Positions 6,310 through 28,095 of a DNA stretch of 64,000 nucleotides are shown here, in pieces. A program made the position numbers and the translations under genes. The notes under the pieces were generated by a model that had not been told where the DNA came from, made no database searches, and was given only the letters and a program-made list of their open reading frames with translations. Each line of letters opens with the position of its first letter. The stretch's first letter is position 1. Source of the stretch: JAYKJB01 sp035284745 [NCBI: Candidatus Sericytochromatia bacterium] (GTDB lineage Bacteria; Cyanobacteriota; Sericytochromatia; S15B-MN24); assembly GCA_035284745.1 (NCBI GenBank), contig JAYKIL010000034.1, positions 73,017 through 137,016 on the forward strand, written 5' to 3'.

Positions 6310-6447
6310 CTGCTTGCGTGCTGCCTCCGCGTCCCTTTTTTCCTCGCTATTAGGAAAAGACGGGTGACTAGTGGCCCTATCCGGGAACAGGAAAAGGCGG
6401 GTATGATCCAGCGAGTGGGCGGTGCGGTCAGGGGCGAGGAGAAGAGA

Positions 6448-7857
6448 ATGTCGGTTTTTCGGTATACGTTACCCATCGTGTGTTCGGCCGTGTTGTTCGC
6501 ATGCGGCGTGGAACCCGCTGGGACACAACCCAAACCGCAGGTGAACACCAGCCAGGATTTGCTCGCTGTCCAGCGTTTATCGGGGCGGGTTGTGTTTTTG
6601 GATGAATCGCGTCCGGGCGCAGTGGTGAAAGCCTACGATCTACTCACCGGCCAGGAAGTTTCTTTGATATCGGCGGGTGGTCAGAATTTGATATCGGCCG
6701 GTGGTCAGAACTTGATAACGGCCGGTGGTCAGAATCTGATTCGTACCGATGACCAGGGCTATTTTGAGGCATTCGTTCCGCTGGCCGATGTTGGCGATGT
6801 CTTGAAGCTTGTGGCTCAGACTGAGGGGGGGGCGCTCGTGAGCTTTGTTGCCCCTCAAGGGCCTGTGTTGGGCGCATCGTGGTTGCCTGGGCGCTATGCT
6901 CTGCGGCAAGCGTCGTCGACAGGCACTGGGGTTCGCGTGGAGATTACCCCCGCAACCACGGTGCTCGCCAAATCCTTTGAAGGGGCACTTAAGCTCCAGT
7001 TTGAAAGACCCCAAGCCGAGCGAGCAGAGGCCATTGAGCGCGTCATCGAGTCGGCGAACAAGACGTTTGACCGGGTGGCTGAGTCGTTGCGCGATAATCC
7101 CGCCACCGCCCGCGATTTGGTATCTGCGCTTGATGAGCAGGGTAACTTGCGAGACATCTCGGCGTTCCAGCGTGCGGTCACCCGCATTGGAGTGATCGAG
7201 GAACTGGTCACGCAAGTAGAGCAGATTGTCTCCGAGGTTAAGCGAACTGTCACCGAATCTTCTGATCGTGATAAGCGGCCGCAAAACCGCCCGGTTCGTC
7301 GGGATGATTTCCCTTTGGGGGCGGTTGAGGTGACCGACAAGGGGGAGGTCACCATTCTTCATCCATCCAAAAAGAATGACGTGACCCCGGCCGCTGGCAT
7401 TGCAAAGACTTCGGAGTCTCCCATCAAGGGGGCTGCGGCGCCGCGTGCGGAAGGGGAGGGGCGTTCCTCTGATGCCCGGGGTAACAGCAATGCTGCCGAG
7501 ACGAAGTTGCCTGCCTCAGAGACTGGGACCAAAAAGGAGCCTGAGAGCGGGGCTTCAACAGGGGGGGGCTCAGCTGCGGATAGCTCGTCGGTCGAGATTG
7601 GACCTGTCAATCCGTCCCGCGACGTGGCGCGTGACGGGACGTCCACGACAAAAGACGAAAGCGCGCAACGGGAAAATGAAAACGGGGCTTCGACCGAAGC
7701 GAAGGGGGGCGGGGTACCGACTTCACGCGCTCAAACGGGGGAGTCGGGGTCTACAAAAACCTCACAGGAACCTGTGGAACGTTCATCGGCTGGCGGCAAC
7801 GGGGGGGATGAAAGACGCGCTGGCCCCGAGACGGCCGCGAGCCGCAATCAGGGCTAA
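6448..7857 (+). CDS. Putative lipoprotein with SAGGQNLI tandem repeat and disordered tail
   Basis: Unrecognised surface lipoprotein of about 469 residues. ATG 6448 has a purine-rich GAGGAGAAGAG in front and gives a clean lipoprotein signal (SVFRYTLPIVCSAVLFAC, lipobox L-F-A-C). The in-frame ATG/GTG codons upstream would bury this signal. Residues about 45-100 look like a carboxypeptidase-regulatory or transthyretin-like beta module (SGRVVFLDESRPGAVVKAYD...DDQGYFEAFVPL). It is interrupted by three tandem copies of an eight-residue unit, [ST]AGGQNLI. A helical middle (residues 190-280) follows. The last 180 residues are low complexity, rich in G, S, T, E and K. It stands alone between mocA and the convergent slipin. 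Function unknown. Confidence 0.75.
   Translation: MSVFRYTLPIVCSAVLFACGVEPAGTQPKPQVNTSQDLLAVQRLSGRVVFLDESRPGAVVKAYDLLTGQEVSLISAGGQNLISAGGQNLITAGGQNLIRTDDQGYFEAFVPLADVGDVLKLVAQTEGGALVSFVAPQGPVLGASWLPGRYALRQASSTGTGVRVEITPATTVLAKSFEGALKLQFERPQAERAEAIERVIESANKTFDRVAESLRDNPATARDLVSALDEQGNLRDISAFQRAVTRIGVIEELVTQVEQIVSEVKRTVTESSDRDKRPQNRPVRRDDFPLGAVEVTDKGEVTILHPSKKNDVTPAAGIAKTSESPIKGAAAPRAEGEGRSSDARGNSNAAETKLPASETGTKKEPESGASTGGGSAADSSSVEIGPVNPSRDVARDGTSTTKDESAQRENENGASTEAKGGGVPTSRAQTGESGSTKTSQEPVERSSAGGNGGDERRAGPETAASRNQG
6670..6741 (+). repeat. 24-bp tandem repeat, three copies, in frame
   Basis: Three direct copies of a 24-bp unit (6670-6693, 6694-6717, 6718-6741), each encoding [ST]AGGQNLI inside the lipoprotein gene. 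The copies differ mainly at third positions and at the first codon of the unit. This suggests an older duplication kept for its protein sequence. Confidence 0.9.
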
Positions 7858-7888: not shown

Positions 7889-8674
7889 TCAGGGTTTCTC
7901 TCGTTCGAGGAAGTGGCGTAAGAGTTCCACGGGCAAAGGAAATACGATGGTACTGTTCTTTTCGGCCGCAATATCCGTTAATGTCGCAAGGTAGCGCAGT
8001 GTGAGTGCTTCAGGCACTGAAGCAATAATCCGCGCCGCCTCTGCCAGTTGACTGGACGCTTGATATTCTCCCTCTGCGTGAATAATTTTTGCTCGCTTTT
8101 CCCGTTCAGCCTCGGCTTGGCGGGCCATGGCCCTTTGCATGGTGCCGGGCATTTCGACGTCCTTAATCTCCACCGCACTCACCTTGATTCCCCACGGTTC
8201 TATCTGCTCATCGATAATCTGTTGCAGTCGTAGGTTGATGGCCGCTCGCTCTGCCAAGAGTTCATCCAGCATGGATTGCCCCAGCACATTGCGGAGAGTG
8301 GTCTGAGCGAGTTGCGCGGTGGCACTGCCGTAGTCTTGGACTTTGATGACGGCTGCGCCCGGATCTACGATGCGGAAGTAGACCACGGCGGTCACTTTAA
8401 TCGTGACATTGTCTCGCGTAATGACTTCTTGGGCCGGCAACTCGAATGTCACGGTGCGGAGGTCCATCCGAATCATTCGATCAATCACCGGAATAATGAA
8501 GAACAGACCGGGCCCTTTCGCGCCGACCAATCGACCCAGCCGAAAAATAACACCGCGTTCATACTCTTGAACCACCCGAACCGATGCCACCGCGAGCGCT
8601 GCCAAGGCCAGGAAAAATATTGAGAAAACCGAGAAAAATCCCGATGTCCACAAAAAACCGAGAATCTCTCCCAT
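7889..8674 (-). CDS. Slipin (stomatin-like SPFH/Band 7 protein)
   Basis: Membrane-anchored SPFH protein of 261 residues, stomatin/slipin subgroup. An N-terminal hydrophobic hairpin (about residues 5-30) is followed by the SPFH domain, beginning [15 protein letters not shown] and including [29 protein letters not shown] and [12 protein letters not shown] charged coiled region ([17 protein letters not shown], about residues 190-210) and the C-terminal segment typical of slipins close it. ATG 8674 has AGGAG eight bases upstream. Slipins assemble into rings or cages and are usually encoded beside an NfeD protease that cleaves them. Here that protease is three genes upstream in the same orientation. 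Known partners suggest membrane quality control; the exact role is unknown. Confidence 0.93.
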
Positions 8675-8722: not shown

Positions 8723-9727
8723 TCATACCAACTCGACCGTTGCACCAACAGTTTCGAGCGAGCGCTTTACCTCTTGGGCATCCTGAGCACGGACTCGCCG
8801 CATGATGGCGTAAGGAGTCTGTTCGACCACGGCTTTGGTATGGGCAAGATCCCAGCCGGTAATTCTGCGAAGCACGCTGATGACATCCAAGACCTGGAGT
8901 CCGGGGGCTTCCAACACGATGTCAACGGTCTCAGAACCGACATTGCCGCTGTCCACAGATTCTCGCACACGTCGGACTGCCACGACGGCCCCGCTGGCCT
9001 CCAGTTGCTGTCGTAGGTTCTCAGCGCGTTCCACGTCACCCGCCGCTGGCAGTGTTGCAGGAAGGTTACTCAGCAGTTCTTTGGCCTCCAAAAGGGCCAA
9101 GTCTGTGGCTTGAGTCAACGCGCGCATGGTCGAGATGGGGTTGTCGCCCGGAGCCAGCAAAACGACCTCCCACGTCACGTTATCTCTTGATGTCGCGCCT
9201 GCAATTTCGCGAACCTCTTCCACTTCAATCGCCATGAGATTGAGGCCCCAACTCAAAGCCGTTTCATTCACCGCTTTTTTGAGACTGCGGCCGAGTTGAC
9301 GGCGATCCTCCTGAGAAATCAGACTTTCCGGGGGCAAGGAACCCACCGCCGCATCGAATGCAATGCTGATGAGTTGTTCGATGGCTGCACTGAGTCGTGT
9401 TTGACGCATGAGGGTTGCCGCTTGCTCCGGTTGAAGAACGACAAATTCAACCTCGAGAATGGCAGCCATCCAGGCCCCGTTTACGGCACGCAAGCTCGGA
9501 AACTCTAGAGTCGCCGCCTGCGGTCGTAACGAGACCCGTGTCCAGGTTTCAAGCCCCAGAATGAAGAAAACACGCCCTTTGCTTTTGGTGCGATGGGGCA
9601 CTCCTCGACGAAAAATCACGATTCTTTCGTCTTCTCCGACCACTACATTGGAAAAGTGGGCCACGATCATGGCCGCCCCTGAAACCAGGGCCAAAGTGAT
9701 CAGAGAGGAAATGAGGAGTGCGCTCAC
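8723..9727 (-). CDS. SPFH-domain protein fused to two ribosomal L7/L12-like C-terminal domains
   Basis: Unusual fusion of about 334 residues. GTG 9727 begins a membrane anchor (SALLISSLITLALVSGAAMIV) just after the stop of the upstream gene. The longer open frame lies over that gene and is rejected. Residues about 25-180 form a divergent SPFH/Band 7 domain (GEDERIVIFRRGVPHRTKSKG, FFILGLETWTRVSL, SWGLNLMAIEVEEV). Residues about 183-253 and 266-334 each look like the C-terminal domain of ribosomal protein L7/L12. They show the VVLLAPGDNPISTMRALTQ... and VDIVLEAPGLQVLDVISVLR openings, a G/D-L-x-x-A/T-K turn (LALLEAKELL, WDLAHTKAVVEQTP), and the ending LEASGAVVAV or LETVGATVELV. The slipin follows after 48 bp. 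The L7/L12 assignment is pattern recognition and needs a profile search. Confidence 0.78.
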   Translation of the reverse strand: MSALLISSLITLALVSGAAMIVAHFSNVVVGEDERIVIFRRGVPHRTKSKGRVFFILGLETWTRVSLRPQAATLEFPSLRAVNGAWMAAILEVEFVVLQPEQAATLMRQTRLSAAIEQLISIAFDAAVGSLPPESLISQEDRRQLGRSLKKAVNETALSWGLNLMAIEVEEVREIAGATSRDNVTWEVVLLAPGDNPISTMRALTQATDLALLEAKELLSNLPATLPAAGDVERAENLRQQLEASGAVVAVRRVRESVDSGNVGSETVDIVLEAPGLQVLDVISVLRRITGWDLAHTKAVVEQTPYAIMRRVRAQDAQEVKRSLETVGATVELV

Positions 9728-9744: not shown

Positions 9745-12375
9745 TTATCGACCAGTCGCCGTCAGGCCTACTCGTGCATTGCGGGTCCCCGCTTCGGAAA
9801 TGCCCGCAAAGCCGACCGTGTAGTTGTTCTCTGCATTCCACAACAAAAATCCGGTGCCCTGAGCGTCTCGGTTGGCCCTGATTTGTCGCGCCACGTAGGC
9901 TGGGCCGTAGTTGCGTATCCGATACGGGAACGCTTGTAACCACGGTCGAATAGCAACCCCCGAACCCGCGGTTTTTTGCGCTACTTTTTTGACCCCTTCC
10001 CCAATAAAATGCTCCGGGTGATCGGGTGGATATGCCAAATTATCGAAATTTTTGTAGAAATGGGAGGGATAAAGCATGGGGCTGATGACATCCAATTGAT
10101 GCCCCATGTCCTCCAGCCTTTGGCCGGTAATCTTTACATCGATGCTTTGCTCCCAGGCAACAACCCCGTATACATCGGCCGAGATCAGCACGCCCGTTGG
10201 CCCCAGGCTTTCGCGCGCTCGTTTGAGCCAGGCGGTGATCACAGGGTGTTTTTCTGGATTGTCTTTTCTTGCTCGCCAGTCGATGTCGCTTGTTTCGCCT
10301 TGTGCCGGGAAGCGAACATAATCGAACTGTATTTCGTCCACACCACTTTTTACCAACTCGTGTGCCAATGCCAGGTTGTAATCTTGCACCGCGGGCAATG
10401 ACGCATCCACCCAAGCCAAATTTCCTGCCTCGCGCCACACCCCTCCCGTTCGCTTCGATTTGAGCGCATATTGGGGCTTTTTGCGCGCGAGCTTCATATC
10501 GTGAAAAAGTACCAGGCGAGCCACGGTGTGAATCCCTTCGCGATGAAGGCGTTCCACCATTTTGGGCAAGTCGTGAATCATACCGCCCCCGTAGGCTTTC
10601 AGTTCGCGAGCGAGCGGAACGTCAGAGTTATACGAGATAGCGCCATTCATATCCTTGGCGTCGAAAACAACCGTGTTACCACCGTGCTTTTTGAGTTCAG
10701 AAACGATTCGCCACAGAGACTCACTGCCTGCGGTGGTCCCGGTGATGTAGACGCCATTGGCCGGGAATGTTTTGTCTCGCTTCACCAGTGCAGGGGCAGG
10801 GGGCGCCTGCCGCACTTGAGGGATGTTCAACCATTCTCCGATCTTTAAAGGTCGGTTTAGCTGATTGCTGCTTCGAATGGCAGTCGCTAACTTCGGATAG
10901 GTGTAATAGTCCGTATAACGTAGGTATCGCCAAGCAATCGCTTCGACGGAGTCTCCTGGCGCGACGCGGTGGCGAATCGTGCCTCCCTGATATTCGCCAC
11001 CTGGGGGTAGCTTTTTGTTGTATCCCGGGTGATGGTCAAGGCCCGGAGGTTGCAGATTTTTATCATCGGAAGCCGTTTCAGGGGCATTGCTATGCGAGAT
11101 CGAGGCGGTGGCGGGTACGGTTTCTACCGGCACATCAGCGGCCAAAGATTGCGAGATACCCGCAGCCCTCGGGGACGCCTCACCAGAGGACGTGAGGGCC
11201 ACGGGGCTTGCCGCTGCGTCTTTTGTCACGTCGTGCGCAGCCGTTTTCGCGGGGTCGAAACTGTTGGTTTTTTGGCCTGTGGGCAAGGACGCTGCATTGA
11301 ACCGTTCTTGGGCTGTTTGGGGAAAACTGACGGTGACCGGATCCCCATCGCTCACGAAGGGCTGCCAGGATTCCTTCACCGGGGCCGTACTGCCTGGTTG
11401 GCGGTTGAACCAATTTTTGAATTCACTGTCGATGCACTGAATGCGGGCAACTCCAGTCGCCTTGTAAGATCTGTCATAGGGCGAATAGGCTGGGTTCGAC
11501 CCGACCAGCAATAATGCAGCGTGGCGGTACGCCGTTTCGCCCGCTCCGCCCGAAACCACCTTCTTTAGCCCCGCAGCATCACGGGGGCCAATGCCAAATG
11601 GCAAGGCAAGGGTGGTCATCGGGTAGGGTCTGCCAATTTCTTTGCTGACGAATGCCTGCAACTTGCCGAGGTGGTTTTCTATCTTCGTTGAAGACATCGT
11701 TCTCAGACTTTCATGGCTCCACGTATGGTTGCCAATCTCTCGGCCCGTATTGACCAAATGGCGAAATTTTTCCCCAATGACGCCAGCCTGGTCGAAGCCA
11801 CTTGGCAGGACGTAAAAAGTCGCGCCCCGGCCAAAATCTGGGTGAGTCGCACAGAAGGTATCAAGCATCCCGACGGCGCAATCGGGATCGACCACTTTTT
11901 TCCCGTCCGCTCCCGTCTTCCAACCTCCTTGGGAATCCTTTAAATAGCGGAATTGCCCGTCCGTGCTGTCGTCAAAGGTGAGCACTACGGGCTTTTTCCC
12001 GGCGGGTACCAGGAATTGCTTTTGAGCGACATCGGCCATGTTCAGGAGATAGTAATTGTTGTTGTAAAGAAAATTGAGGTCTTTGCGGAAATTTTCTGGG
12101 GTGCGAGTCCATCGTTCCTCTTTTGGGCCGAACCGATGGTACTCAAGCACAGGGATGAAGCCCAGTTCGTTTGCGATGCCTTGTCGCGTTTTCAAGATCG
12201 GCCCCGTGGCTGTCTTCGCTGGCGATGAGATATCAGCGCGCGTTTGTTGGTGCTGCTGCTGGAGACCTTTCGGTGGGTTGCTTTGCTCGTCCGTTTTCGG
12301 GCAACCGAGGGTTCCCCCGGCGCACAAAATGGCGATGACCCTTATGAACAACTGATCGGAATGCGAGGCACTCAT
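9745..12375 (-). CDS. Lipoprotein: polysaccharide deacetylase (NodB) + LysM + GHL/DUF4015 glycosidase-like fusion
   Basis: Three-domain cell-wall enzyme of about 876 residues. ATG 12375 has AAGGAG at good spacing and gives a lipoprotein signal (lipobox TLGC, Cys 25). Residues about 75-320 form a NodB-type deacetylase. The first motif reads LTFDDSTDG (133-140), where the usual TFDDG glycine is replaced by Ser. The zinc motif NHTWSH is intact near 216-221. After a low-complexity linker, a LysM domain (about 467-520, HRVAPGDSVEAIAWRYLRY) should bind peptidoglycan. The C-terminal half (about 540-870) is a DUF4015/GHL TIM-barrel family with DEIQFDYVRFPAQG and DVISPMLYPSH. It sits between the SPFH fusion (17 bp downstream) and the NfeD protease (112 bp upstream). 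Likely an envelope glycan-modifying enzyme; substrate unknown. Confidence 0.85.
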   Translation of the reverse strand: MSASHSDQLFIRVIAILCAGGTLGCPKTDEQSNPPKGLQQQHQQTRADISSPAKTATGPILKTRQGIANELGFIPVLEYHRFGPKEERWTRTPENFRKDLNFLYNNNYYLLNMADVAQKQFLVPAGKKPVVLTFDDSTDGQFRYLKDSQGGWKTGADGKKVVDPDCAVGMLDTFCATHPDFGRGATFYVLPSGFDQAGVIGEKFRHLVNTGREIGNHTWSHESLRTMSSTKIENHLGKLQAFVSKEIGRPYPMTTLALPFGIGPRDAAGLKKVVSGGAGETAYRHAALLLVGSNPAYSPYDRSYKATGVARIQCIDSEFKNWFNRQPGSTAPVKESWQPFVSDGDPVTVSFPQTAQERFNAASLPTGQKTNSFDPAKTAAHDVTKDAAASPVALTSSGEASPRAAGISQSLAADVPVETVPATASISHSNAPETASDDKNLQPPGLDHHPGYNKKLPPGGEYQGGTIRHRVAPGDSVEAIAWRYLRYTDYYTYPKLATAIRSSNQLNRPLKIGEWLNIPQVRQAPPAPALVKRDKTFPANGVYITGTTAGSESLWRIVSELKKHGGNTVVFDAKDMNGAISYNSDVPLARELKAYGGGMIHDLPKMVERLHREGIHTVARLVLFHDMKLARKKPQYALKSKRTGGVWREAGNLAWVDASLPAVQDYNLALAHELVKSGVDEIQFDYVRFPAQGETSDIDWRARKDNPEKHPVITAWLKRARESLGPTGVLISADVYGVVAWEQSIDVKITGQRLEDMGHQLDVISPMLYPSHFYKNFDNLAYPPDHPEHFIGEGVKKVAQKTAGSGVAIRPWLQAFPYRIRNYGPAYVARQIRANRDAQGTGFLLWNAENNYTVGFAGISEAGTRNARVGLTATGR

Positions 12376-12487
12376 CGAGACTCCTTCCGTCACGCCGAGT
12401 GGCGTGCGGGTGGTAATGGTGGGTTGGGTTACGGCAGAATGGCTACCCGAAAGGCACAACCCTTCGCGGGGTTGAGTCGGTGCTGAA

Positions 12488-13876
12488 TTATGTTACCTGA
12501 TTCTCCCTGAGCTTGCGGCGCACGTAAAGGGTCAGCCCCTCGACCCGTTCGACAGTCACAATTTCTCCCACTTCCAAGGAATCTGAACCCTCAACAAGGA
12601 CCGCGCGCCAGAGCTCTCCTTGACAATGAACGATCCCCGCGGTGCCTGCCATTTCGGTGACCACGACGTCTTGTCCCTCCATCGCCTCGACGCCCACCGC
12701 CGGAGGACGATGTTGAGATTTGAGTGCAAAATGAAGGATCAACGCGACCATCCCCCCCGTCAAAACGGCACTTGTGATGATAAAGGGCCAAGCCGGGGCC
12801 AGGGATGCGGCATCTTTTCCGAATAGCATGAGGCCCCCCAAGATAAGGGCGAGAATGCCCCCCACGGTTAACAGGCCAAAACTTGGAATGAGAGCCTCCG
12901 CGACGAAAAGGAGCAACCCGAAAATGATGAGTGCGATGCCGGTGCCATTGATGGGAAGCGTGCCAAGGGCAAATAGACCCAACAACAGGCAAATGACACC
13001 CACCACACCCGGCAGAATGGCGCCGGGCGACTGCAATTCGATCAGGATGCCGATAACCCCAATGTTCATGAGGATCAGTGCCACCGTCGGATCGGCCAAT
13101 TTGAAAAGCATCTTTTCTATGGCCGACATCGGGACTTCTCGTAATGATGCCCCCTGAAGGCGGAGTGTCACCGGAACGCCAGCGACGTTCAAACGACGGC
13201 CTTCGAGGCCGCGTCGAAGTGCCGGAATATCGGCGGCCAGCACGTCGACCACGCGAAGCCGCAAGGCCTCTTTCGCTGTGATAGAGACACTCTTGCGAAC
13301 GGCTTGCTCAACCCACTCGGCATTTCTTCCCCGCTGTGTGGCCAGACCGCGGGCATAGGCGGCCGCGTCATTGGTGACTTTTTCAGCCAAGTCCCCTTTG
13401 ATGTCTTCGCCCGAACCAGAAACAGGGTGCGCCGCGCCGATGGCGGTGTCGGGGGCCATGGCCGCGACGTGTGCGGCAATGGTGATAAACATGCCGGCCG
13501 ACGCTGCGCGCCCACCTGCCGGCGCAACCCAGACCACGACGGGGATACGGCTGGCAATGAGATCTTTAACCATCTCGCGCATGGCGCTATCCAGTCCGCC
13601 TGGCGTGTCCAGCCGAAGAACGACTGCAGAAGCTTGCAGATCTTCCGCCTCTTGCAGCCCACGCCTGAAATAGTGTGCCGAGACCGGTGTGATTGGGCCT
13701 GCGATGGTGAGAACAAAGATGTCAGGCTTCGCCGTACCGGGGCCCGGTACGGTATCAAGGGCGGCAGCCGTCATTCCGAGCGTGAGCCAAAAAAAGCATA
13801 GAAAGCCAAAAAGAGTTTTCAGGCCCACCAGGGGCCTGAAAACGTTGCAAAGTGTTTCATGAAGGGGGCTTTCCAA
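12488..13876 (-). CDS. nfeD: NfeD long form (ClpP-class membrane serine protease with OB domain)
   Basis: Membrane-bound serine protease that, in characterised homologues, cleaves the C-terminal hydrophobic segment of stomatin-like proteins. It has 462 residues. A signal or TM segment (about 18-38) leads into a ClpP/SppA-like domain with the catalytic serine in GGRAASAGMFI (Ser126) and the catalytic lysine in the DIKGDLAEKVTND segment (Lys160 or Lys166). Three to four TM helices (about 265-400) include LLFVAEALIPSFGLL, and the C-terminal OB-fold follows. The start is TTG 13876, with AGGA overlapping the flotillin stop. The gap to flotillin is only 7 bp, so the two are surely co-expressed. It belongs with the slipin, SPFH fusion and short NfeD of this locus. 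Confidence 0.92.
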   Translation of the reverse strand: MESPLHETLCNVFRPLVGLKTLFGFLCFFWLTLGMTAAALDTVPGPGTAKPDIFVLTIAGPITPVSAHYFRRGLQEAEDLQASAVVLRLDTPGGLDSAMREMVKDLIASRIPVVVWVAPAGGRAASAGMFITIAAHVAAMAPDTAIGAAHPVSGSGEDIKGDLAEKVTNDAAAYARGLATQRGRNAEWVEQAVRKSVSITAKEALRLRVVDVLAADIPALRRGLEGRRLNVAGVPVTLRLQGASLREVPMSAIEKMLFKLADPTVALILMNIGVIGILIELQSPGAILPGVVGVICLLLGLFALGTLPINGTGIALIIFGLLLFVAEALIPSFGLLTVGGILALILGGLMLFGKDAASLAPAWPFIITSAVLTGGMVALILHFALKSQHRPPAVGVEAMEGQDVVVTEMAGTAGIVHCQGELWRAVLVEGSDSLEVGEIVTVERVEGLTLYVRRKLRENQVT

Positions 13877-13883
13877 GGCGTTC

Positions 13884-15434
13884 CTAATGCTTGGACTGGG
13901 CGATTTGGAAGGGCTCGATGTGCCCTGTGTCCGAACCGTTGGGGACGGCGGGCGTCTCTATGACAGGGTTGCCTTTTCTAATCTGATTCATCAGGTCTTG
14001 TATGGAATGCCCTGTGATCGCTTGGATGACTTCTGGAATCTGGGCGACCATTTTCGCGACCTCGCCCGTCAGCGCGCTGGGGCCGTTTTTCCCGTCGCCC
14101 GCGGAGACAATGGTGATTTTGTCTACCTGGGTGAGGGAATTCGAGAAGGCTTGAGCCATTTGAGGCAAGGAGGCGAGGATGCCATCCAAAATGGCCGCTT
14201 CCGTGTAGCGTTCATAGGCATCAGCGCGCTTGTGCATCGCCTCGGCTTCCGCATTGCCTTTTGCGCGGACGACCTCAGCTTCCGCTTCACCACGCGAGCG
14301 CATCACCTCGGCTTCGGCCTTCCCTTTCATCGCCGTAATTTCTGCTTCGGCTTGTCCTTGGGCCCGAAAGGCTTCCGCGCGTCCGCTGGCCTCACGGGCA
14401 ATTTTCTGACGTTCCGCTTCGGCGAGAATCTCAATCCGTCGCTGGTCTGCATTGGCCTGTTTAATCATCATGGCTTCAAGTTCAAATTCGCGTCGTTTGA
14501 CTTCAAGCTCTTGTACGCGCAGTTGCTCTTGCTTTTCGACTTGGGCGATGCGTACCTGCTCCGCGATAACTTTTTGCTGTGCTTGGTTGGCCGCGATTTC
14601 GTACGCTTTCTCCGCGAGGGCACGCTGTTCATTCACCGTTGCGTCATACTCGGCGCGTTTCACGTTCAGGTCGCGTTGGGCCTCCGCCTGACGGGTTTCA
14701 GAGATGGATTGCGCCAACACACGCTCTTGGTCTGCCCCGGCCTGCGCGACGGATGCTTCGCGAGACGTCTCAGCCCTCCGTATTTGGATGTCGCGCTGGG
14801 CTTCGGCATCCGCAATTTCTGCCACCCGTTTGACCGCCGCGACGTCCGGACGACCCATGTTACTGATGTAGTCTTGATCATCGGTTACTTTGCGGATCGT
14901 GAAGGAGATCATCTCCAGCCCCATCTTGTCGAGATCCTCTGCGACGGTTTCCCGCACTCTGCTCACGACATTTTCTGGTTCTTTCACAATTTGCTCGATC
15001 GTGAGCAAGCCCACAATGCCTCGCAGGTGACCTTCCATCACCAACTTGATGAGGTTTTCGCGCTCCGTCTGGCTCTTGTCGAGGAACTGCTCTGCCGCTG
15101 TCTGAATGCTTCGGGTATCACTCTTCACTTTCAGTTGCGCCACTGCCTCGACACTTACCGCGATGCCCTGATGGGTGTAAATATCTTGTTCAGGGTTGAC
15201 ATCAAAACTCATCAATTCCAAAGACAGTTCCTTGCAACTCTGTATCATCGGAATCACAAGCTTCCCGCCGGTCGTAACAATATTAGTGCCGCCCCAACCG
15301 TATACAATCAGGGCCCGGTTGGGGGGGATTTGCCGATAGATACTGGCACCTATCCACAAAATACCGAACAGTGAGCCCACCAACAATGACGCGACGAGCA
15401 GGATCGTGCCAAGGTTTTCAGTCAAATCAAACAA
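13884..15434 (-). CDS. Flotillin family protein (SPFH + long coiled coil)
   Basis: Flotillin/YqiK-type scaffold of membrane microdomains, 516 residues. One N-terminal TM segment (about 10-33) is followed by an SPFH domain (about 34-200, RQIPPNRALIVYGWGG to SFTIRKVTDDQDYI). A long Ala/Glu-rich coiled coil (about 205-430) has the repeated EAE motifs typical of flotillins. A C-terminal region (ILASLPQMAQAFSNSLTQVDKITIVSAGDG) drives oligomerisation in the family. The start is TTG 15434, with AAGGAG about 9 bp upstream. It lies between the two NfeD genes, matching the common nfeD-flotillin pairing. The opposite strand carries a long open frame that is only a shadow of the coiled coil. Confidence 0.95.
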   Translation of the reverse strand: MFDLTENLGTILLVASLLVGSLFGILWIGASIYRQIPPNRALIVYGWGGTNIVTTGGKLVIPMIQSCKELSLELMSFDVNPEQDIYTHQGIAVSVEAVAQLKVKSDTRSIQTAAEQFLDKSQTERENLIKLVMEGHLRGIVGLLTIEQIVKEPENVVSRVRETVAEDLDKMGLEMISFTIRKVTDDQDYISNMGRPDVAAVKRVAEIADAEAQRDIQIRRAETSREASVAQAGADQERVLAQSISETRQAEAQRDLNVKRAEYDATVNEQRALAEKAYEIAANQAQQKVIAEQVRIAQVEKQEQLRVQELEVKRREFELEAMMIKQANADQRRIEILAEAERQKIAREASGRAEAFRAQGQAEAEITAMKGKAEAEVMRSRGEAEAEVVRAKGNAEAEAMHKRADAYERYTEAAILDGILASLPQMAQAFSNSLTQVDKITIVSAGDGKNGPSALTGEVAKMVAQIPEVIQAITGHSIQDLMNQIRKGNPVIETPAVPNGSDTGHIEPFQIAQSKH

Positions 15435-19236: not shown

Positions 19237-19346
19237 GCTCCTACAAAAGATGACTGGCTGCGTATTGTACCATCGTGGTTACGTTGCGCCTCCGGATGGG
19301 CCGGTGGGAGAATAGTACTCGAAGTCCTCGGGATTGGAGCGGTCAG

Positions 19347-22300
19347 ATGATAGGTGAACTGCTGGTCAATCGCTATCGGGTGTTGCGCCAATTGGGTGAG
19401 GGCGCGATGGGCGAGGTGTGGCTGGTAGAAGATACGACCCATTCCCTTGAGGTGGCCCTGAAGGTTATTGCAAGGCGAGGAGCGACCGCTTCGATCGACG
19501 AGGAGCAACTGGAAAAGTCATACCTGGACTTCGAGCAGGAATTTCGTCTGATGACCCAGTTGCGCCATCGGAATTGTTGTGAAGTGCTTGATTACGGATT
19601 GCTGCCGGGCGGTCAACCTTACATCACGATGGAGTATGTTCCAGGGGTTGGCCTGGACGAGTTGGGTCGCGTCGATGCAGCCACTTTTCAGTCTCTGTTT
19701 TCTCAGATTGCTGCGGCATTGGAGTACATTCACGCGAGAGGTCTGGTTCATTCCGACCTGAAGTCTGCCAACGTGCGCGTGCGTCCTGACGGAACGCTGA
19801 AAGTAATGGATTACGGCCTGATGGAGTATGCCGGCCGGGTGGGGGGAGCGATTAGGGGCACACTGGGCTATCTGGCCCCGGAGGTGTTTCGGCGGGGTTT
19901 GATTGATCGCCGTACCGACCTCTATGCCTTGGGTGTCTTGGGGTTCGAGATGTTGACCGGGCGTCTGCCTTTCGAGGCTGAAAAACCCGGTGACGTTGTT
20001 CGAGCACACGTTGAAACCGCTCCGCCGCGTATGGCTGAGTTCGTGACGGGTATTGAGCCTCATCACGAGAGAATTGTGAGGCGTTTGCTCGCCAAAGAAC
20101 CCTTGGAACGGTTTCAATCGGCTGAGGAAATACTCATTGCTTTGGGCCTTGCGGAGGATCGTGGCCTCACAGGTCGACTGCTGGCATCCCCTCTCGTCGG
20201 GCGGGCTTCGGAAATGGCCCGTTTGTTTGTGTGCCTGGCACGAGTAACCGGTGGCAGGCCGGGCGCCGCGTTGGTGATACGGGGGCCTGCGGGGTCCGGA
20301 AAAAGTCGTTTGCTTAAGGAGTTTAGCTTCAATGCCCGTTTAGAGAACTTGCCTTACTCTGAATCCCACAATTTGGAGTTTGCTCAAGCCCCCTACGCGT
20401 CACTGATCATAATTCTCCGGGGGCTGATGCCGTATTTTCGGGAGTTCGTGCCTGACGAACTTGTCGCTTCAGCACCTGTGCTCGCCAAAATTTTGCCCGA
20501 GTTGTCGGGTGAAGTGGCACGGGAACTGGAAGCGGGCGACCAGAAGAAACGTCTTCAGGCAACGATTGTGGGGCTTATTCACGCATTGGCTTCTCGGCGG
20601 GGCACCGTTTTATTGGTCGAAGACCTTCAATGGGTTGATGCGTTAACCCAAGAGGTCCTGACAGCGCTCATCTCCATCACCACTGAAATGCCGTTGTTGC
20701 TCTTGCTCACCACCCGCGGGGAGCGAGACCAGTGGCTGAAGGAAGATGTTGTAAGGGCGATTGACCTGCCTTTGCTTCCGCGTGCAGGCATTGAACGCAT
20801 GGTGGCTTCGATGCTCGGTGTGACAGAACTCGAGGCGGCGATCGCCGACCTTGTGGTCCAGACAGCCGCCGGGAATCCTGGCTACGTGGAAATTTTCCTG
20901 GAACATCTGGTTGAAACTCACGCCCTGCGTCGAAGCCAGGGAACGTGGATGCTTGTCGCGGACTCTTTTGCCGAGCGCGAGCAATGGGCTGTCTCGGGTT
21001 TGCTGGCACGGAAGTTTTCGGCCTTGCCAGGCTCTGCGCAAGCCTTGGCGCGGATTGCTGCGGTGTGGGGCGGCGAATTTACCCTCGAGACGTTAAGGGA
21101 TCTCGCCGAGACTTCTGACGACGCTTTCTTCGCGGCGATGGAAACCTTGCGGGCTAATCAAATCTTTATTCCGGTGGACGCGGGGCGCTGGAACATACCG
21201 GCAGATTCCCTTCGCAACGCAATTTTTGAGACCCTTCACCCGACAGACAGACGGCTGTTGCATACACGCGTGGGGCAGTATTTGGTCCGTCACGCCCCGG
21301 GCCACACATTGGACGGCTTGTCGATGGGCTTGCTTGTGGCCGCAACCCGTCATTTCTGTCAGGGCGAATTGCCCTACGAGGCCGTGCGCACATCACTAGA
21401 GTTGGGAAGCCGTCTGGCTGCACTTTCCGCCCTCCAGGAGGCCGCGGTTCATCTGGAGGCCGGTCTGACGTTGTTGCGAGACAATGAGCCAGGCTCTCCC
21501 TTGGAAGCGGAGTTTCTCAGGTTGTTGGGCCATGTTTACCAACAGGCGGGGGAATTCGAGCGAGCCCGTTTCACTTATTCAGAGCTGATTCCACGCTTGG
21601 AAATTCTGGGTGATCGCTTCTTGCTTGGGCGCGTTTTGATTGCTTCCAGTGCTGTCGAACAAGCCCTGGACAACTTGGAAGACGCGTTGCTCCTCGCTGA
21701 ACGGGCACATCGTGTGGCGCTTGATGCGTCTGATTTTGCGGGTGCTGCTCGCGCGCGGCTTTTGGCCGGTAAGGCGGCAGGGTCCATGGGCCGTACCGGG
21801 GATTCCCTGCGCTGGCTGAAAGAGGCGCTTGACCTATCCGATTTAAGCGATGAGGTTGCTTTGGTTGCCGAATGCTTGGCAGAGCATGGTTTCGCGCAGG
21901 CTGCCTGGTTGCCAGAGAATATCGAACAAGGGCTTGATGCGTTGGGTCGTGCCCTGGACCAGGTATCGCAGGTGGATGACACGCGGGGAAAGATGCGTGT
22001 CTTGACGTTGTTGGGGCAGACTCAGTTGGCGGCGGGGGAATATGCGGGAGCCCGAACGCAACTCGCTGCGGCGCAAAAACTTGCATCCCAACTGGGAGAC
22101 GCCCTGGAACTGTGTGTTATGCAGACGCTGCTGGCTCTGTGTGACCTGGAATCGGGCGCCTTCGATGCGGCGGCCGATTCCGCCCGCCTGAATGTCGAGG
22201 CGGCCGGGAGATTGGGGTCGAGCTATCTGCTTGGAATTGGCCTGATGACCGAGGTGGTAAGCGAGGTGTGGCGAGGCAATTTAAAGGAAGCCTCGGCCTT

Positions 22301-23078
22301 GATGGGGGTCGCCTTTGAACAAGCGGGCGGAACTCGCAACACCTGGGGAGAGGCCCGTATGTTGGCCCTAAAGGGGGATGCATTGTCCTTGATGGGACGG
22401 AATGCTGAGTCTTTGCAGACGGCCGAGCGCTTGCAGGAATTGATGGTTGATACAGGGAATTTGGAGCCTCAAGGCCGTTTGTGTCTTCTTTGGGGCGAAA
22501 ACCTTTTGCGGTCTGGCGCGTTGGATGAGGCTGCGCAGTTTTTCAAACAGGCTTTGGAAATTGCGCAGAGCAGTCGTTCGCTATACGTCCAACTGCAGGC
22601 CTTATTAGGGTGTGCGCGACTGGCTTTGGAACGGGAAATTTGGGACGATGCATCGAATGCCATCGAGAAGGCGTTGAGTTTAGCGCAGACGATGGGTGTA
22701 TCGTATGCGGAGGCGTTGGCCTGGGGCCTGAAGGGTGAATACGGTTTAGCGGTGCAAGACGGAAGCCCCGGCGAGGCATTTGTTCGCATGCGGGAACTTG
22801 CCAGCCACCATCACTTGCCTCTGCTGGAGGCGCGCGCGCTGTTCGGAATGGCTGCCTCGAATCCGTATGATGAAAATGCTCGCGGGATGGCCGGTGCAGC
22901 GCGTGAAATCATTGAGCGGCTCGTCGACGGGCTTTCGCTGCACCACGCTGAGGCCTACTTGGCCTTGCCTCAGATTCAACAGATGAGGGAAGGCAACTTT
23001 GTCGCCTTCGGTTTGCGTCGGCGGATGATTCGAAAATTTTCAGCTCCAAAAATTGATCCTCACTCTTGGCTGCGCTGA
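19347..23078 (+). CDS. Serine/threonine kinase fused to AAA/STAND-type ATPase and TPRs
   Basis: Signalling protein of about 1243 residues. ATG 19347 has GGAG at 7 bp spacing and begins right at the kinase fold. Kinase domain (about 8-265): G-loop GEGAMGEVW (17-25), Lys39 in VALKVI, catalytic loop HSDLKSANV (Asp137; HSD replaces HRD) and DYG (155-157) instead of DFG. The catalytic residues are kept, so it is probably active. Next comes an ATPase with Walker A GPAGSGKS (313-320) and Walker B VLLVEDLQWVD. It is followed by about 650 residues of TPR-like helices. No output enzyme follows the repeats, unlike many such kinases with GAF or cyclase ends. It is divergent from the 1018-residue membrane protein. 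Confidence 0.88.
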   Translation: MIGELLVNRYRVLRQLGEGAMGEVWLVEDTTHSLEVALKVIARRGATASIDEEQLEKSYLDFEQEFRLMTQLRHRNCCEVLDYGLLPGGQPYITMEYVPGVGLDELGRVDAATFQSLFSQIAAALEYIHARGLVHSDLKSANVRVRPDGTLKVMDYGLMEYAGRVGGAIRGTLGYLAPEVFRRGLIDRRTDLYALGVLGFEMLTGRLPFEAEKPGDVVRAHVETAPPRMAEFVTGIEPHHERIVRRLLAKEPLERFQSAEEILIALGLAEDRGLTGRLLASPLVGRASEMARLFVCLARVTGGRPGAALVIRGPAGSGKSRLLKEFSFNARLENLPYSESHNLEFAQAPYASLIIILRGLMPYFREFVPDELVASAPVLAKILPELSGEVARELEAGDQKKRLQATIVGLIHALASRRGTVLLVEDLQWVDALTQEVLTALISITTEMPLLLLLTTRGERDQWLKEDVVRAIDLPLLPRAGIERMVASMLGVTELEAAIADLVVQTAAGNPGYVEIFLEHLVETHALRRSQGTWMLVADSFAEREQWAVSGLLARKFSALPGSAQALARIAAVWGGEFTLETLRDLAETSDDAFFAAMETLRANQIFIPVDAGRWNIPADSLRNAIFETLHPTDRRLLHTRVGQYLVRHAPGHTLDGLSMGLLVAATRHFCQGELPYEAVRTSLELGSRLAALSALQEAAVHLEAGLTLLRDNEPGSPLEAEFLRLLGHVYQQAGEFERARFTYSELIPRLEILGDRFLLGRVLIASSAVEQALDNLEDALLLAERAHRVALDASDFAGAARARLLAGKAAGSMGRTGDSLRWLKEALDLSDLSDEVALVAECLAEHGFAQAAWLPENIEQGLDALGRALDQVSQVDDTRGKMRVLTLLGQTQLAAGEYAGARTQLAAAQKLASQLGDALELCVMQTLLALCDLESGAFDAAADSARLNVEAAGRLGSSYLLGIGLMTEVVSEVWRGNLKEASALMGVAFEQAGGTRNTWGEARMLALKGDALSLMGRNAESLQTAERLQELMVDTGNLEPQGRLCLLWGENLLRSGALDEAAQFFKQALEIAQSSRSLYVQLQALLGCARLALEREIWDDASNAIEKALSLAQTMGVSYAEALAWGLKGEYGLAVQDGSPGEAFVRMRELASHHHLPLLEARALFGMAASNPYDENARGMAGAAREIIERLVDGLSLHHAEAYLALPQIQQMREGNFVAFGLRRRMIRKFSAPKIDPHSWLR

Positions 23079-26658: not shown

Positions 26659-28095
26659 TTGGAATTTGTTATCCACAGACGTGACCCACATCGCCAAGAG
26701 GTTTTTCGCATTGACGATCCGCGAGGAACCTGGCGATCGGTGGTTGAGCGCGCCGTCGAGAGCGGGGTACCTCTTGATGATGTTAACCTCTCGGAGAGAG
26801 ATCTGGCAGGCCTGTCGCTCTCGTCGGCCTCCTTGCGGCGTGCACATCTGACCGGCAGTAACCTGCATCAAGCCAAACTGGTCGGAGCGATTCTCACTGA
26901 CGCCCAATTGGGGGGCAGCGACCTCGACTGGGCCGATCTTTCGGAGGCTGACCTCAGCGGTGCGTTTTTAGGGCACGCGGATCTTTCCTACGCGAACCTC
27001 TCGCAGGCGATTTTGTATCGGGCAGACCTTTCAGATTCTGTTCTCGTCGGGACCACGCTGTCAGGTGCCAATCTGCGGGAGGCGAAATTGAGAGCACTGA
27101 ATCTTGCCGGCTTGAATCTTGTGGCGGTGGACCTTCAGGGCGCTGATCTGACAGGGGCCAATTTGTCCAGAACGGACTTACGCGAGGCCAATTTGACAGG
27201 AGCCAAATTAGAGGGAGCACTTTTGGGTGGCGCCAACTTGTCGGGTGCCAACCTCCGGGGAGTCTGGGCGTCGCAGAGTTGTTTGGCAGGCGCAAATTTT
27301 TCGGGGGCCGACCTGACAGGTGCCGATATGAGCAAGGCAGATTTATCGGGAGCCTGCTTGTCTCAAGCGACCCTGCGGGGAGTCAATTTTGTGGATGCGA
27401 ATCTTCGCTGGGCTGAAATGCCTGAGGTTTTGATGACTTATGCCAACCTGACAGGGGCTCGTCTGCAGCGCGCGAACCTGTCTGGAGCGTCGTTTACCCA
27501 AGTGTTGTCAGGAGGGGGATGGGCGCGTTCGAGTCTCGAGGGTGCTTGTTTTGATGATGCGCAACTTTTTGAGGCCAATTTGAGCCGGCTCGATTTGTCG
27601 CGGGTGAGCTTTCAACGAACCAATTTGATTCGTGCGAATCTCAGCTTTACGCGTTGTTTTGAGGCGAACTTCAATCAGGCGCGCATGAGCGGCGCAGCAC
27701 TTCATCGGGCGCAATTGAACAAGTCTGATATGTATCGAATTGACGCTCGGCGGGCCGATCTTCGAGAGGCTAATTTGTCCTTGGTGGACCTGACGGAGGC
27801 TGATCTCAAAGGCGCTGACCTGTCCGAGGCGAACTTGAGGCGGGCCAACTTGACACGCGCGAATTTAGGCCTGTGTGGACTGGTGAATGCAAACCTCACG
27901 GAGGCAAATTTGACTGAAACCTACATGGGTGAGGCACGGATGGAGGGGGCTCTCCTTGATCGGGCCACTTTGAGTGCCACCGAATTGAGCGCCCGCCAGG
28001 CGGAAACTCAACCAAGTGCCCGCCTGCGGGAGGCTCGCAGGCGAGCGATGTCATCCAGGGATATTGGACGAAATCAGCCTGGCGGGCGACAATAG
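26659..28095 (+). CDS. Pentapeptide-repeat protein
   Basis: Protein of 478 residues that is almost entirely pentapeptide repeats (A-[DN]-L-x-x). After a 45-residue head, repeats run from about residue 50 to 445, with units such as ADLSEADLSGA, ANLTGAKLEGA and ADLKGADLSEANL. They predict a long right-handed quadrilateral beta helix. The start is TTG 26659, with GAGGTGAGAG just upstream. The next internal start would lose the head, which has no repeats. No signal peptide or TM segment is seen, so it is probably cytoplasmic. It lies 34 bp after the OmpA-like gene. Some family members mimic DNA and protect gyrase, but most have no known role; I assign none. Confidence 0.9.
   Translation: MEFVIHRRDPHRQEVFRIDDPRGTWRSVVERAVESGVPLDDVNLSERDLAGLSLSSASLRRAHLTGSNLHQAKLVGAILTDAQLGGSDLDWADLSEADLSGAFLGHADLSYANLSQAILYRADLSDSVLVGTTLSGANLREAKLRALNLAGLNLVAVDLQGADLTGANLSRTDLREANLTGAKLEGALLGGANLSGANLRGVWASQSCLAGANFSGADLTGADMSKADLSGACLSQATLRGVNFVDANLRWAEMPEVLMTYANLTGARLQRANLSGASFTQVLSGGGWARSSLEGACFDDAQLFEANLSRLDLSRVSFQRTNLIRANLSFTRCFEANFNQARMSGAALHRAQLNKSDMYRIDARRADLREANLSLVDLTEADLKGADLSEANLRRANLTRANLGLCGLVNANLTEANLTETYMGEARMEGALLDRATLSATELSARQAETQPSARLREARRRAMSSRDIGRNQPGGRQ

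What the first reader, a model, noticed from the sequence alone, without database searches (positions are those of the whole stretch)
8723..9727. SPFH protein carrying two tandem L7/L12-like (ClpS-fold-like) domains
After a divergent SPFH domain the protein has two copies of a module that matches the C-terminal domain of ribosomal protein L7/L12 in strand-helix order, in the D-L-x-x-x-K turn and in the xxxAGAxVxV ending (8969-9181 and 8726-8932). That fold is shared with ClpS, an adaptor that brings substrates to ClpAP. An SPFH scaffold with adaptor-like domains, in the same locus as a ClpP-class NfeD protease and two other SPFH proteins, suggests a membrane scaffold that recruits proteins for cleavage or recruits translation factors.
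Basis: partly seen in the sequence, partly recalled or inferred. Interest (0 to 1): 0.85.

Follow-up and report, generated by a model that had tools for sequence, protein, structure and literature searches.

The report
Membrane scaffold with ribosome-stalk binding domains
A bacterial membrane-scaffold gene related to stomatin has lost the helical half that normally builds its cage and carries instead two copies of the binding domain of ribosomal stalk protein L7/L12, a pairing not met in the genomes we could search, probably making it an accessory scaffold subunit with an unknown binding partner.

Summary
The 334-aa protein at 8723-9727 (-) has an N-terminal membrane helix, a divergent stomatin-type SPFH domain (Pfam Band_7, 44.9 bits) and two complete L7/L12 C-terminal domains (PF00542; 44.4 and 54.9 bits). 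AlphaFold gives both modules the L7/L12 order of strands and helices; module 1 matches L7/L12 at Z 12 and ClpS at Z 10. The modules stand where stomatins have their cage-building helices.

ClpS is not matched in sequence and its pocket residues are absent. Of five basic helix 4-5 columns kept in 48 of 48 ribosomal L12 domains, each module keeps two.

The gene lies in a flotillin / ClpP-NfeD / glycosyl-hydrolase / SPFH-L12 / stomatin gene row. Best reading: an accessory SPFH subunit whose cage half was swapped for two L12-fold binding arms with a changed partner. No match joined SPFH and L12 in samples of three phyla (296, 299, 297 genomes), in plasmids or phages. The host is unplaced, so relatives may exist unseen. 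New variant of a known kind.

The parts
8723..9727 (-). SPFH-L12 gene (334 aa; GTG start at 9727, stop codon at 8723-8725)
   Evidence: starts 17 bases after the stop of the gene before it
9662..9718 (-). N-terminal membrane helix (residues 4-22)
   Evidence: hydropathy 2.35 over 19 residues
9209..9643 (-). divergent stomatin-type SPFH domain (residues 29-173)
   Evidence: Pfam PF01145 44.9 bits; against the window stomatin z 13, against the flotillin's first 230 residues z 2
8969..9181 (-). L7/L12 C-terminal-domain module 1 (residues 183-253)
   Evidence: PF00542 44.4 bits; model Z 12.4 to 8yeq and 11.8 to 1ctf
8933..8968 (-). 12-residue linker between the modules
   Evidence: holds the only stretch of the model under pLDDT 50
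8726..8932 (-). L7/L12 C-terminal-domain module 2 (residues 266-334)
   Evidence: PF00542 54.9 bits; same strand/helix order in the model, without alignment rows of its own
7889..8674 (-). canonical stomatin (SPFH1), 261 aa, next gene downstream
   Evidence: Band_7 138.5 bits; 260.9 bits to solved stomatin chains 9wmj and 9oh9
9745..12459 (-). lipoprotein-like gene: polysaccharide deacetylase + weak LysM + DUF4015 glycosyl-hydrolase domain; likely ATG start at 12375
   Evidence: PF13200 300 bits, PF01522 44.7 bits, LysM below its cut-off; start judged by eye from a lipobox-like N-terminus
12488..13876 (-). NfeD1b: ClpP-like protease + membrane + NfeD C-terminal domain
   Evidence: PF25145, PF24961, PF01957; 129.6 bits to PH1510-N, Ser and Lys in register
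13884..15434 (-). flotillin, 516 aa
   Evidence: Band_7 105.5 bits; FloT model 339 bits, below its cut-off of 700

Best explanation
The gene encodes a membrane-anchored stomatin paralogue in which the C-terminal half that builds the SPFH cage (wall helix, cap helix, C-terminal strand) has been replaced by two L7/L12-fold modules. Most likely it is an accessory SPFH subunit that sits in or beside a ring of the neighbouring stomatin or flotillin, and whose two modules are protein-binding arms that bring one or more partners to that membrane patch. Shown here: domain make-up, fold of the modules (predicted), swap at the end of the SPFH domain, gene neighbours, loss of most of the basic factor-site residues and of the ClpS pocket residues. 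Inferred: co-assembly with the neighbour, orientation of the arms to the cytoplasm, the existence and identity of a new partner.
For: Aligned to ten stomatins (the window's own and 9 of the 10 fetched; L087 fell out of my script's filter), the SPFH part ends just before the helical region, where module 1 begins. Within the SPFH part it keeps 14 of 40 columns that are invariant in those ten, among them the Glu that I place at stomatin E59, but it has Val where all ten have the Arg that I place at R70. [quoted passage not shown] The modules keep 12 and 16 of 25 near-invariant bL12 columns while losing most of the basic ones in helices 4-5. L12-fold modules outside the ribosome are on record: a single-TM protein with HTH + ClpS-L7/L12 domain (PMC12419801, section 26 read) and insertions in vWA-MoxR systems (PMC7159879, passage seen); here also in viral contigs, one with membrane helix + coiled-coil-like stretch + L12 domain (L099, judged by eye). 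Five genes on one strand, with gaps of 7, 28 (to the TTG start; longer to the likely ATG), 17 and 48 bases.
Against: No relative was found, so no conservation shows which module surfaces matter. Co-assembly is untested; 26 of 40 invariant SPFH columns are changed, so it may not enter a ring. The whole protein could not be modelled: pLDDT 38 without an alignment. Operon membership rests on spacing alone.
Confidence: 0.45

Rival explanations
1. The L12 modules mainly hold subunits together: they replace the lost helical wall as an oligomerisation device and bind no outside partner.
For: They stand where stomatins have the helical region; the eLife 2020 paper calls the L12/ClpS domain 'multimerizing' (PMC7159879, passage seen).
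Against: In bL12 it is the N-terminal domain that dimerises, and the C-terminal domain binds factors (PMC12548414, passage seen). No interface was modelled.
Confidence: 0.2
2. A membrane-tethered mimic of the ribosomal stalk that recruits translational GTPases or ribosomes to membrane patches.
For: Sequence closeness to bL12 is strong; one Lys of the site (K84 by my recalled numbering) is kept in both modules, a basic residue at K70 in module 1 and R73 in module 2.
Against: Only 2 of 5 basic helix 4-5 columns are basic in each module and the segment charge is -1 and 0 against +1 to +3 in 48 bL12 domains.
Confidence: 0.1
3. A ClpS-like adaptor that brings substrates to a protease such as the NfeD1b neighbour.
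For: Shared fold: module 1 against ClpS Z 10.4, rmsd 1.7, 70 aligned; an NfeD1b protease with Ser and Lys in register is in the same gene row.
Against: No ClpS sequence signal; the [N/D]-D pair and the His, present in 12 of 12 ClpS, are missing (in one of two alignments D-N of module 1 falls on the pair, in reversed order). ClpS serves the cytoplasmic unfoldase ClpA, whereas the protease domain of the studied archaeal NfeD lies outside the cytoplasm (both recalled).
Confidence: 0.07
4. Decaying or chimeric gene without function, or an assembly join.
For: No relative found in the places searched; strongly divergent SPFH domain.
Against: One open frame of 334 codons; GC3 0.59 against 0.59-0.65 in 14 genes of the window and codon score 0.071 within their range of 0.052-0.107; the other two forward frames hold 14 and 10 stops. 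The antisense codon score is 0.064, so the score alone proves little. The two modules differ at 48 of 65 aligned places, so their pairing is old.
Confidence: 0.05

Closest known systems
Stomatin / SPFH1 with NfeD1b operons (PH1511-PH1510 type)
   Same: Membrane helix + stomatin-type SPFH domain, NfeD1b and a canonical stomatin in the same gene row; tandem SPFH1 duplicates are on record (PMC2636767, section 13 read)
   Different: The part after the SPFH domain is replaced by two L12 modules; a flotillin and a deacetylase/DUF4015 gene share the row
Ribosomal protein bL12, C-terminal domain
   Same: Fold and many of the near-invariant residues; profile scores over the cut-offs
   Different: No bL12 N-terminal domain, two copies in tandem, most basic helix 4-5 residues lost
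Non-ribosomal ClpS/L12-domain proteins (single-TM HTH + L12; vWA-MoxR insertions; viral proteins)
   Same: L12-fold module used as a separate unit, sometimes on a membrane helix
   Different: None of those I looked at has an SPFH domain or two full modules; the papers were seen in passages and one section, and a 308-aa phage protein aligned over 142 columns (A0A7M1RYT6) was not examined
ClpS adaptor
   Same: Same fold class, Z about 10
   Different: No sequence signal, no pocket residues

Membership tests
SPFH / Band_7 (stomatin branch) | Band_7 domain over the Pfam cut-off | tested here: met
   44.9 bits against 23.6; stomatin rather than flotillin by z 13 against 2
SPFH / Band_7 (stomatin branch) | wall helix, cap helix and C-terminal strand after the SPFH domain | tested here: not met
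   region replaced by L12 module 1 in alignment with ten stomatins
SPFH / Band_7 (stomatin branch) | ring salt-bridge pair E59-R70 | tested here: not met
   Glu kept, Arg replaced by Val; 10 of 10 stomatins have both (E59/R70 placed by me on the motif)
SPFH / Band_7 (stomatin branch) | assembles into a membrane ring | not testable with these tools
   needs protein
L7/L12 C-terminal domain | PF00542 over cut-off in each module | tested here: met
   44.4 and 54.9 bits against 25.9
L7/L12 C-terminal domain | beta-alpha-alpha-beta-alpha-beta fold | tested here: met
   model of both modules; module 1 Z 11.8 to 1ctf, rmsd 1.4, 68 aligned; module 2 was not matched separately
ribosomal protein bL12 | N-terminal domain for dimerisation and L10 binding | tested here: not met
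   best NCBIfam L12 stretch covers profile 59-124 of 125 only
ribosomal protein bL12 | basic factor site in helices 4 and 5 | tested here: not met
   2 of 5 basic columns in each module, 5 of 5 in 48 of 48 bL12 domains
ClpS adaptor | PF02617 sequence match | tested here: not met
   none listed at E<=10; own profile of 10 ClpS at most 6.9 bits to a module
ClpS adaptor | [N/D]-D pair and His (recalled as the N-degron pocket) | tested here: not met
   12 of 12 fetched ClpS have both; alignment of the modules with ten of them
NfeD1b-SPFH1 gene row | NfeD with ClpP-like domain beside a stomatin | tested here: met
   separated here by two genes

The most novel reading that the evidence does not exclude
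A new SPFH class in which the cage wall has been exchanged for stalk-type arms, so that membrane microdomains gather translation factors or ribosomes, with paired divergent modules recognising different partners: a membrane-bound stalk mimic.
Probability: 0.08. Interest if true: 0.85.

Novelty: new variant of a known kind. Interest (0 to 1): 0.52.

Why it matters
It would be an SPFH protein that keeps the membrane-facing half and swaps the cage half for independent binding domains, which gives a clean way to ask what each half of an SPFH protein does. It also adds SPFH scaffolds to the list of non-ribosomal uses of the L12 domain.

Tried and rejected
ClpS reading: rejected on sequence and pocket residues, kept only as fold kinship. 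Stalk-mimic reading: weakened by loss of basic residues. The modules as part of a normal SPFH C-terminus: rejected.

Relatives: P0001 found no relative in genome contigs (79 stretches matched a pattern, none a relative; six exact 8-residue patterns, so only close relatives could ring) or viral contigs. Plasmids (6 of 72,556 records) and phages (7 of 50,697) gave L12-domain matches only. Phylum samples: 82 of 296 genomes matched at E<=1e-7, 113 of 299 at E<=1e-7, 7 of 297 at E<=3e-9. In the listed matches none covered the SPFH domain together with an L12 module; some bL12 matches begin at residue 148-165, in frames of 128-180 aa. At most 7 candidates per genome were scored in these calls. Searches drew, as far as the listed rows show, largely the same genomes and are not counted again. 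There was no positive control with both domains; each half was detected separately.

Host: no genome is held for the window. GlmM found at best 54% identity, to Alicyclobacillus. A cyanobacterial or Sericytochromatia host is only my guess from memory of repeat style, untested; a plasmid locus gave no way into that phylum.

A tree of 57 L12 domains left both modules on branches of 6 to 7 changes per column, so it cannot say whether they arose by duplication. Single-sequence AlphaFold of the whole protein failed, pLDDT 38. Stomatin queries in viral contigs found nothing.

The term 'l7 l12' does not match the usual spelling with a slash (a paper known to hold it counted 0), so the empty and that term elsewhere show nothing. 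Usable: SPFH with bL12, 0 papers; SPFH with L12 as whole words, 2 papers: PMC7159879, whose SPFH mention is a reference title, and PMC5445863, a spray-drying study seen in the listing only. The library holds open-licence papers only.

Full report
What is there. The minus-strand frame 8723-9727 encodes 334 residues. Pfam reports a Band_7/SPFH domain at residues 29-173 (44.9 bits) and two L7/L12 C-terminal domains. Module 1 (8969-9181) alone scores 44.4 bits and module 2 (8726-8932) 54.9 bits, both over the 25.9-bit cut-off. NCBIfam's L12 equivalog also passes its cut-off, but only over the C-terminal half of the profile. The best solved chains by sequence are L7/L12 and, further down, stomatins for the SPFH part. 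The modules match each other far better than shuffles (z 9.5) with 17 of 65 identities, so they are an old pair.

Fold. AlphaFold of the tandem region with seven viral L12-domain rows gave mean pLDDT 81.5, and strand-helix-helix-strand-helix-strand in both modules. All seven rows aligned to module 1, so module 2 was modelled essentially from its own sequence; its blocks of ten lie at pLDDT 59-83, those of module 1 at 84-96. VIA-align puts module 1 on L7/L12 at Z 12.4 (8yeq, rmsd 1.5, 70 aligned) and 11.8 (1ctf, rmsd 1.4, 68 aligned), and on ClpS at Z 10.4 (9ayo, rmsd 1.7, 70 aligned); the first rows outside these two families are at Z 7.9. Foldseek ranks 1ctf first. Module 2 was not matched on its own. 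The full protein without an alignment gave no usable model.

How it departs from a stomatin. Its SPFH part is stomatin-like (z 13 against the neighbour stomatin, z 2 against the flotillin). The human stomatin ring has SPFH1, SPFH2, a wall helix, a cap helix and a C-terminal barrel strand, with subunit salt bridges E59-R70 in SPFH1 and more in wall and cap helices (PMC12344292: passages and section 9). Here the Glu is kept, the Arg is Val, and the other bridges' helices are missing, whereas all ten stomatins keep both residues. Of 40 SPFH columns invariant in the ten, 14 are kept. So this protein should not build a stomatin cage by itself; joining a ring of its neighbour through the kept face is an inference.

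What the modules have lost. I took 48 bL12 domains, one from each of loci L021-L028 (found with PF00542) and L031-L070 (found with this protein). In them 25 columns are at least 95% one residue; module 1 keeps 12 and module 2 keeps 16. I judge those kept to be mostly fold positions, from memory of the structure, not from a computed burial. Five conserved basic columns lie in the helix 4-5 stretch, described as the conserved, positively charged site for IF2, EF-Tu, EF-G and RF3 (PMC6753160, passages; the choice of these five columns and their E. coli numbers are mine). Every one of the 48 has all five; module 1 has P, R, T, L, K and module 2 has V, S, R, A, K. The ClpS side fares no better: no PF02617 hit is listed up to E 10; a profile of ten ClpS, picked by a motif, scores 6.9 and 1.4 bits, but it also gives real bL12 domains only 1.7 to 12.8 bits, so this test is weak by itself. 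The [N/D]-D pair and the His are present in 12 of 12 fetched ClpS and not in the modules.

Neighbours. On the same strand, in reading order: flotillin, NfeD1b, a lipoprotein-like deacetylase/DUF4015 gene, this gene, and a canonical stomatin. NfeD1b aligns to the solved protease PH1510-N, with the Ser that is Ala in chain 6m4b and a Lys in register (the catalytic roles are recalled). NfeD1b-SPFH1 and NfeD-flotillin operons, and tandem SPFH1 duplicates, are described in PMC2636767 (passages and section 13). So the gene row is a richer version of a known kind, and this protein takes the place of a second SPFH1 copy. In Staphylococcus aureus, flotillin with NfeD is reported to hold unfolded proteins in microdomains (PMC11222466, abstract and section list only).

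How widespread. Matches in three phylum samples of 296, 299 and 297 genomes fell on the L12 part or on the SPFH part, never on both; the same held for plasmids and phages, where only L12 matches came. A fixed-pattern scan of the genome collection found no close relative. These searches could not reach the phylum of the host, which is unknown, and had no positive control with both domains, so rarity is shown only for the places searched. L12 modules outside the ribosome do exist: a family search of 149 genomes gave 147 matches in 142 genomes, five of them second matches: one inside a 1193-aa frame that looks like RpoB, one cut by a contig end, two in frames of 96 and 98 aa, and one below the cut-off that looks like elongation factor Ts (RpoB and EF-Ts named from memory of their sequence). 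Viral contigs fetched with a bL12 query carry such modules on other partners; that set is biased to modules with the classical motif.

Explanation. I take it to be an accessory SPFH subunit with two binding arms of changed specificity (0.45). Arms that only hold subunits together (0.2), a stalk mimic (0.1), a ClpS-like adaptor (0.07) and a broken or chimeric gene (0.05) are the rivals; the rest is left for functions not thought of.

Verdict. The two suggested mechanisms are not supported by the residues that would be needed. The architecture appears to be new, as a variant of a known kind of protein, as far as the searches named here reach; of two papers holding both 'SPFH' and 'L12', one does not describe such a protein in the passages seen and one was seen in the listing only.

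Noticed in passing
An L12 module inside an RNA polymerase beta subunit deserves its own look.
   Followed up: partly
L097, L098, L099, L103 (viral contigs): L12-domain or helix 4-5 motif fused, by eye, to a P-loop kinase-like part, an HTH-like part, a membrane helix with coiled-coil-like stretch, and in L103 present twice in part.
   Followed up: partly
A0A7M1RYT6, crAss-like phage protein in BFVD: A 308-aa 'bL12 C-terminal domain-containing protein' aligned to the tandem model over 142 columns; possibly another tandem L12 protein.
   Followed up: no
window 6364-7857 (+): Lipoprotein-like frame with a short tandem repeat LISAGGQNLISAGGQNLITAGGQNLI near its N-terminus and no Pfam match over a cut-off.
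   Followed up: no
window 9745-12459 (-): Polysaccharide deacetylase + weak LysM + DUF4015 glycosyl-hydrolase domain in one lipoprotein-like gene, lying between nfeD and the SPFH-L12 gene.
   Followed up: no
window 19275-23078 (+) and 26659-28095 (+): A 1267-aa serine/threonine kinase with matches to TOMM kinase/cyclase fusions below their cut-off, and a 478-aa pentapeptide-repeat protein.
   Followed up: no
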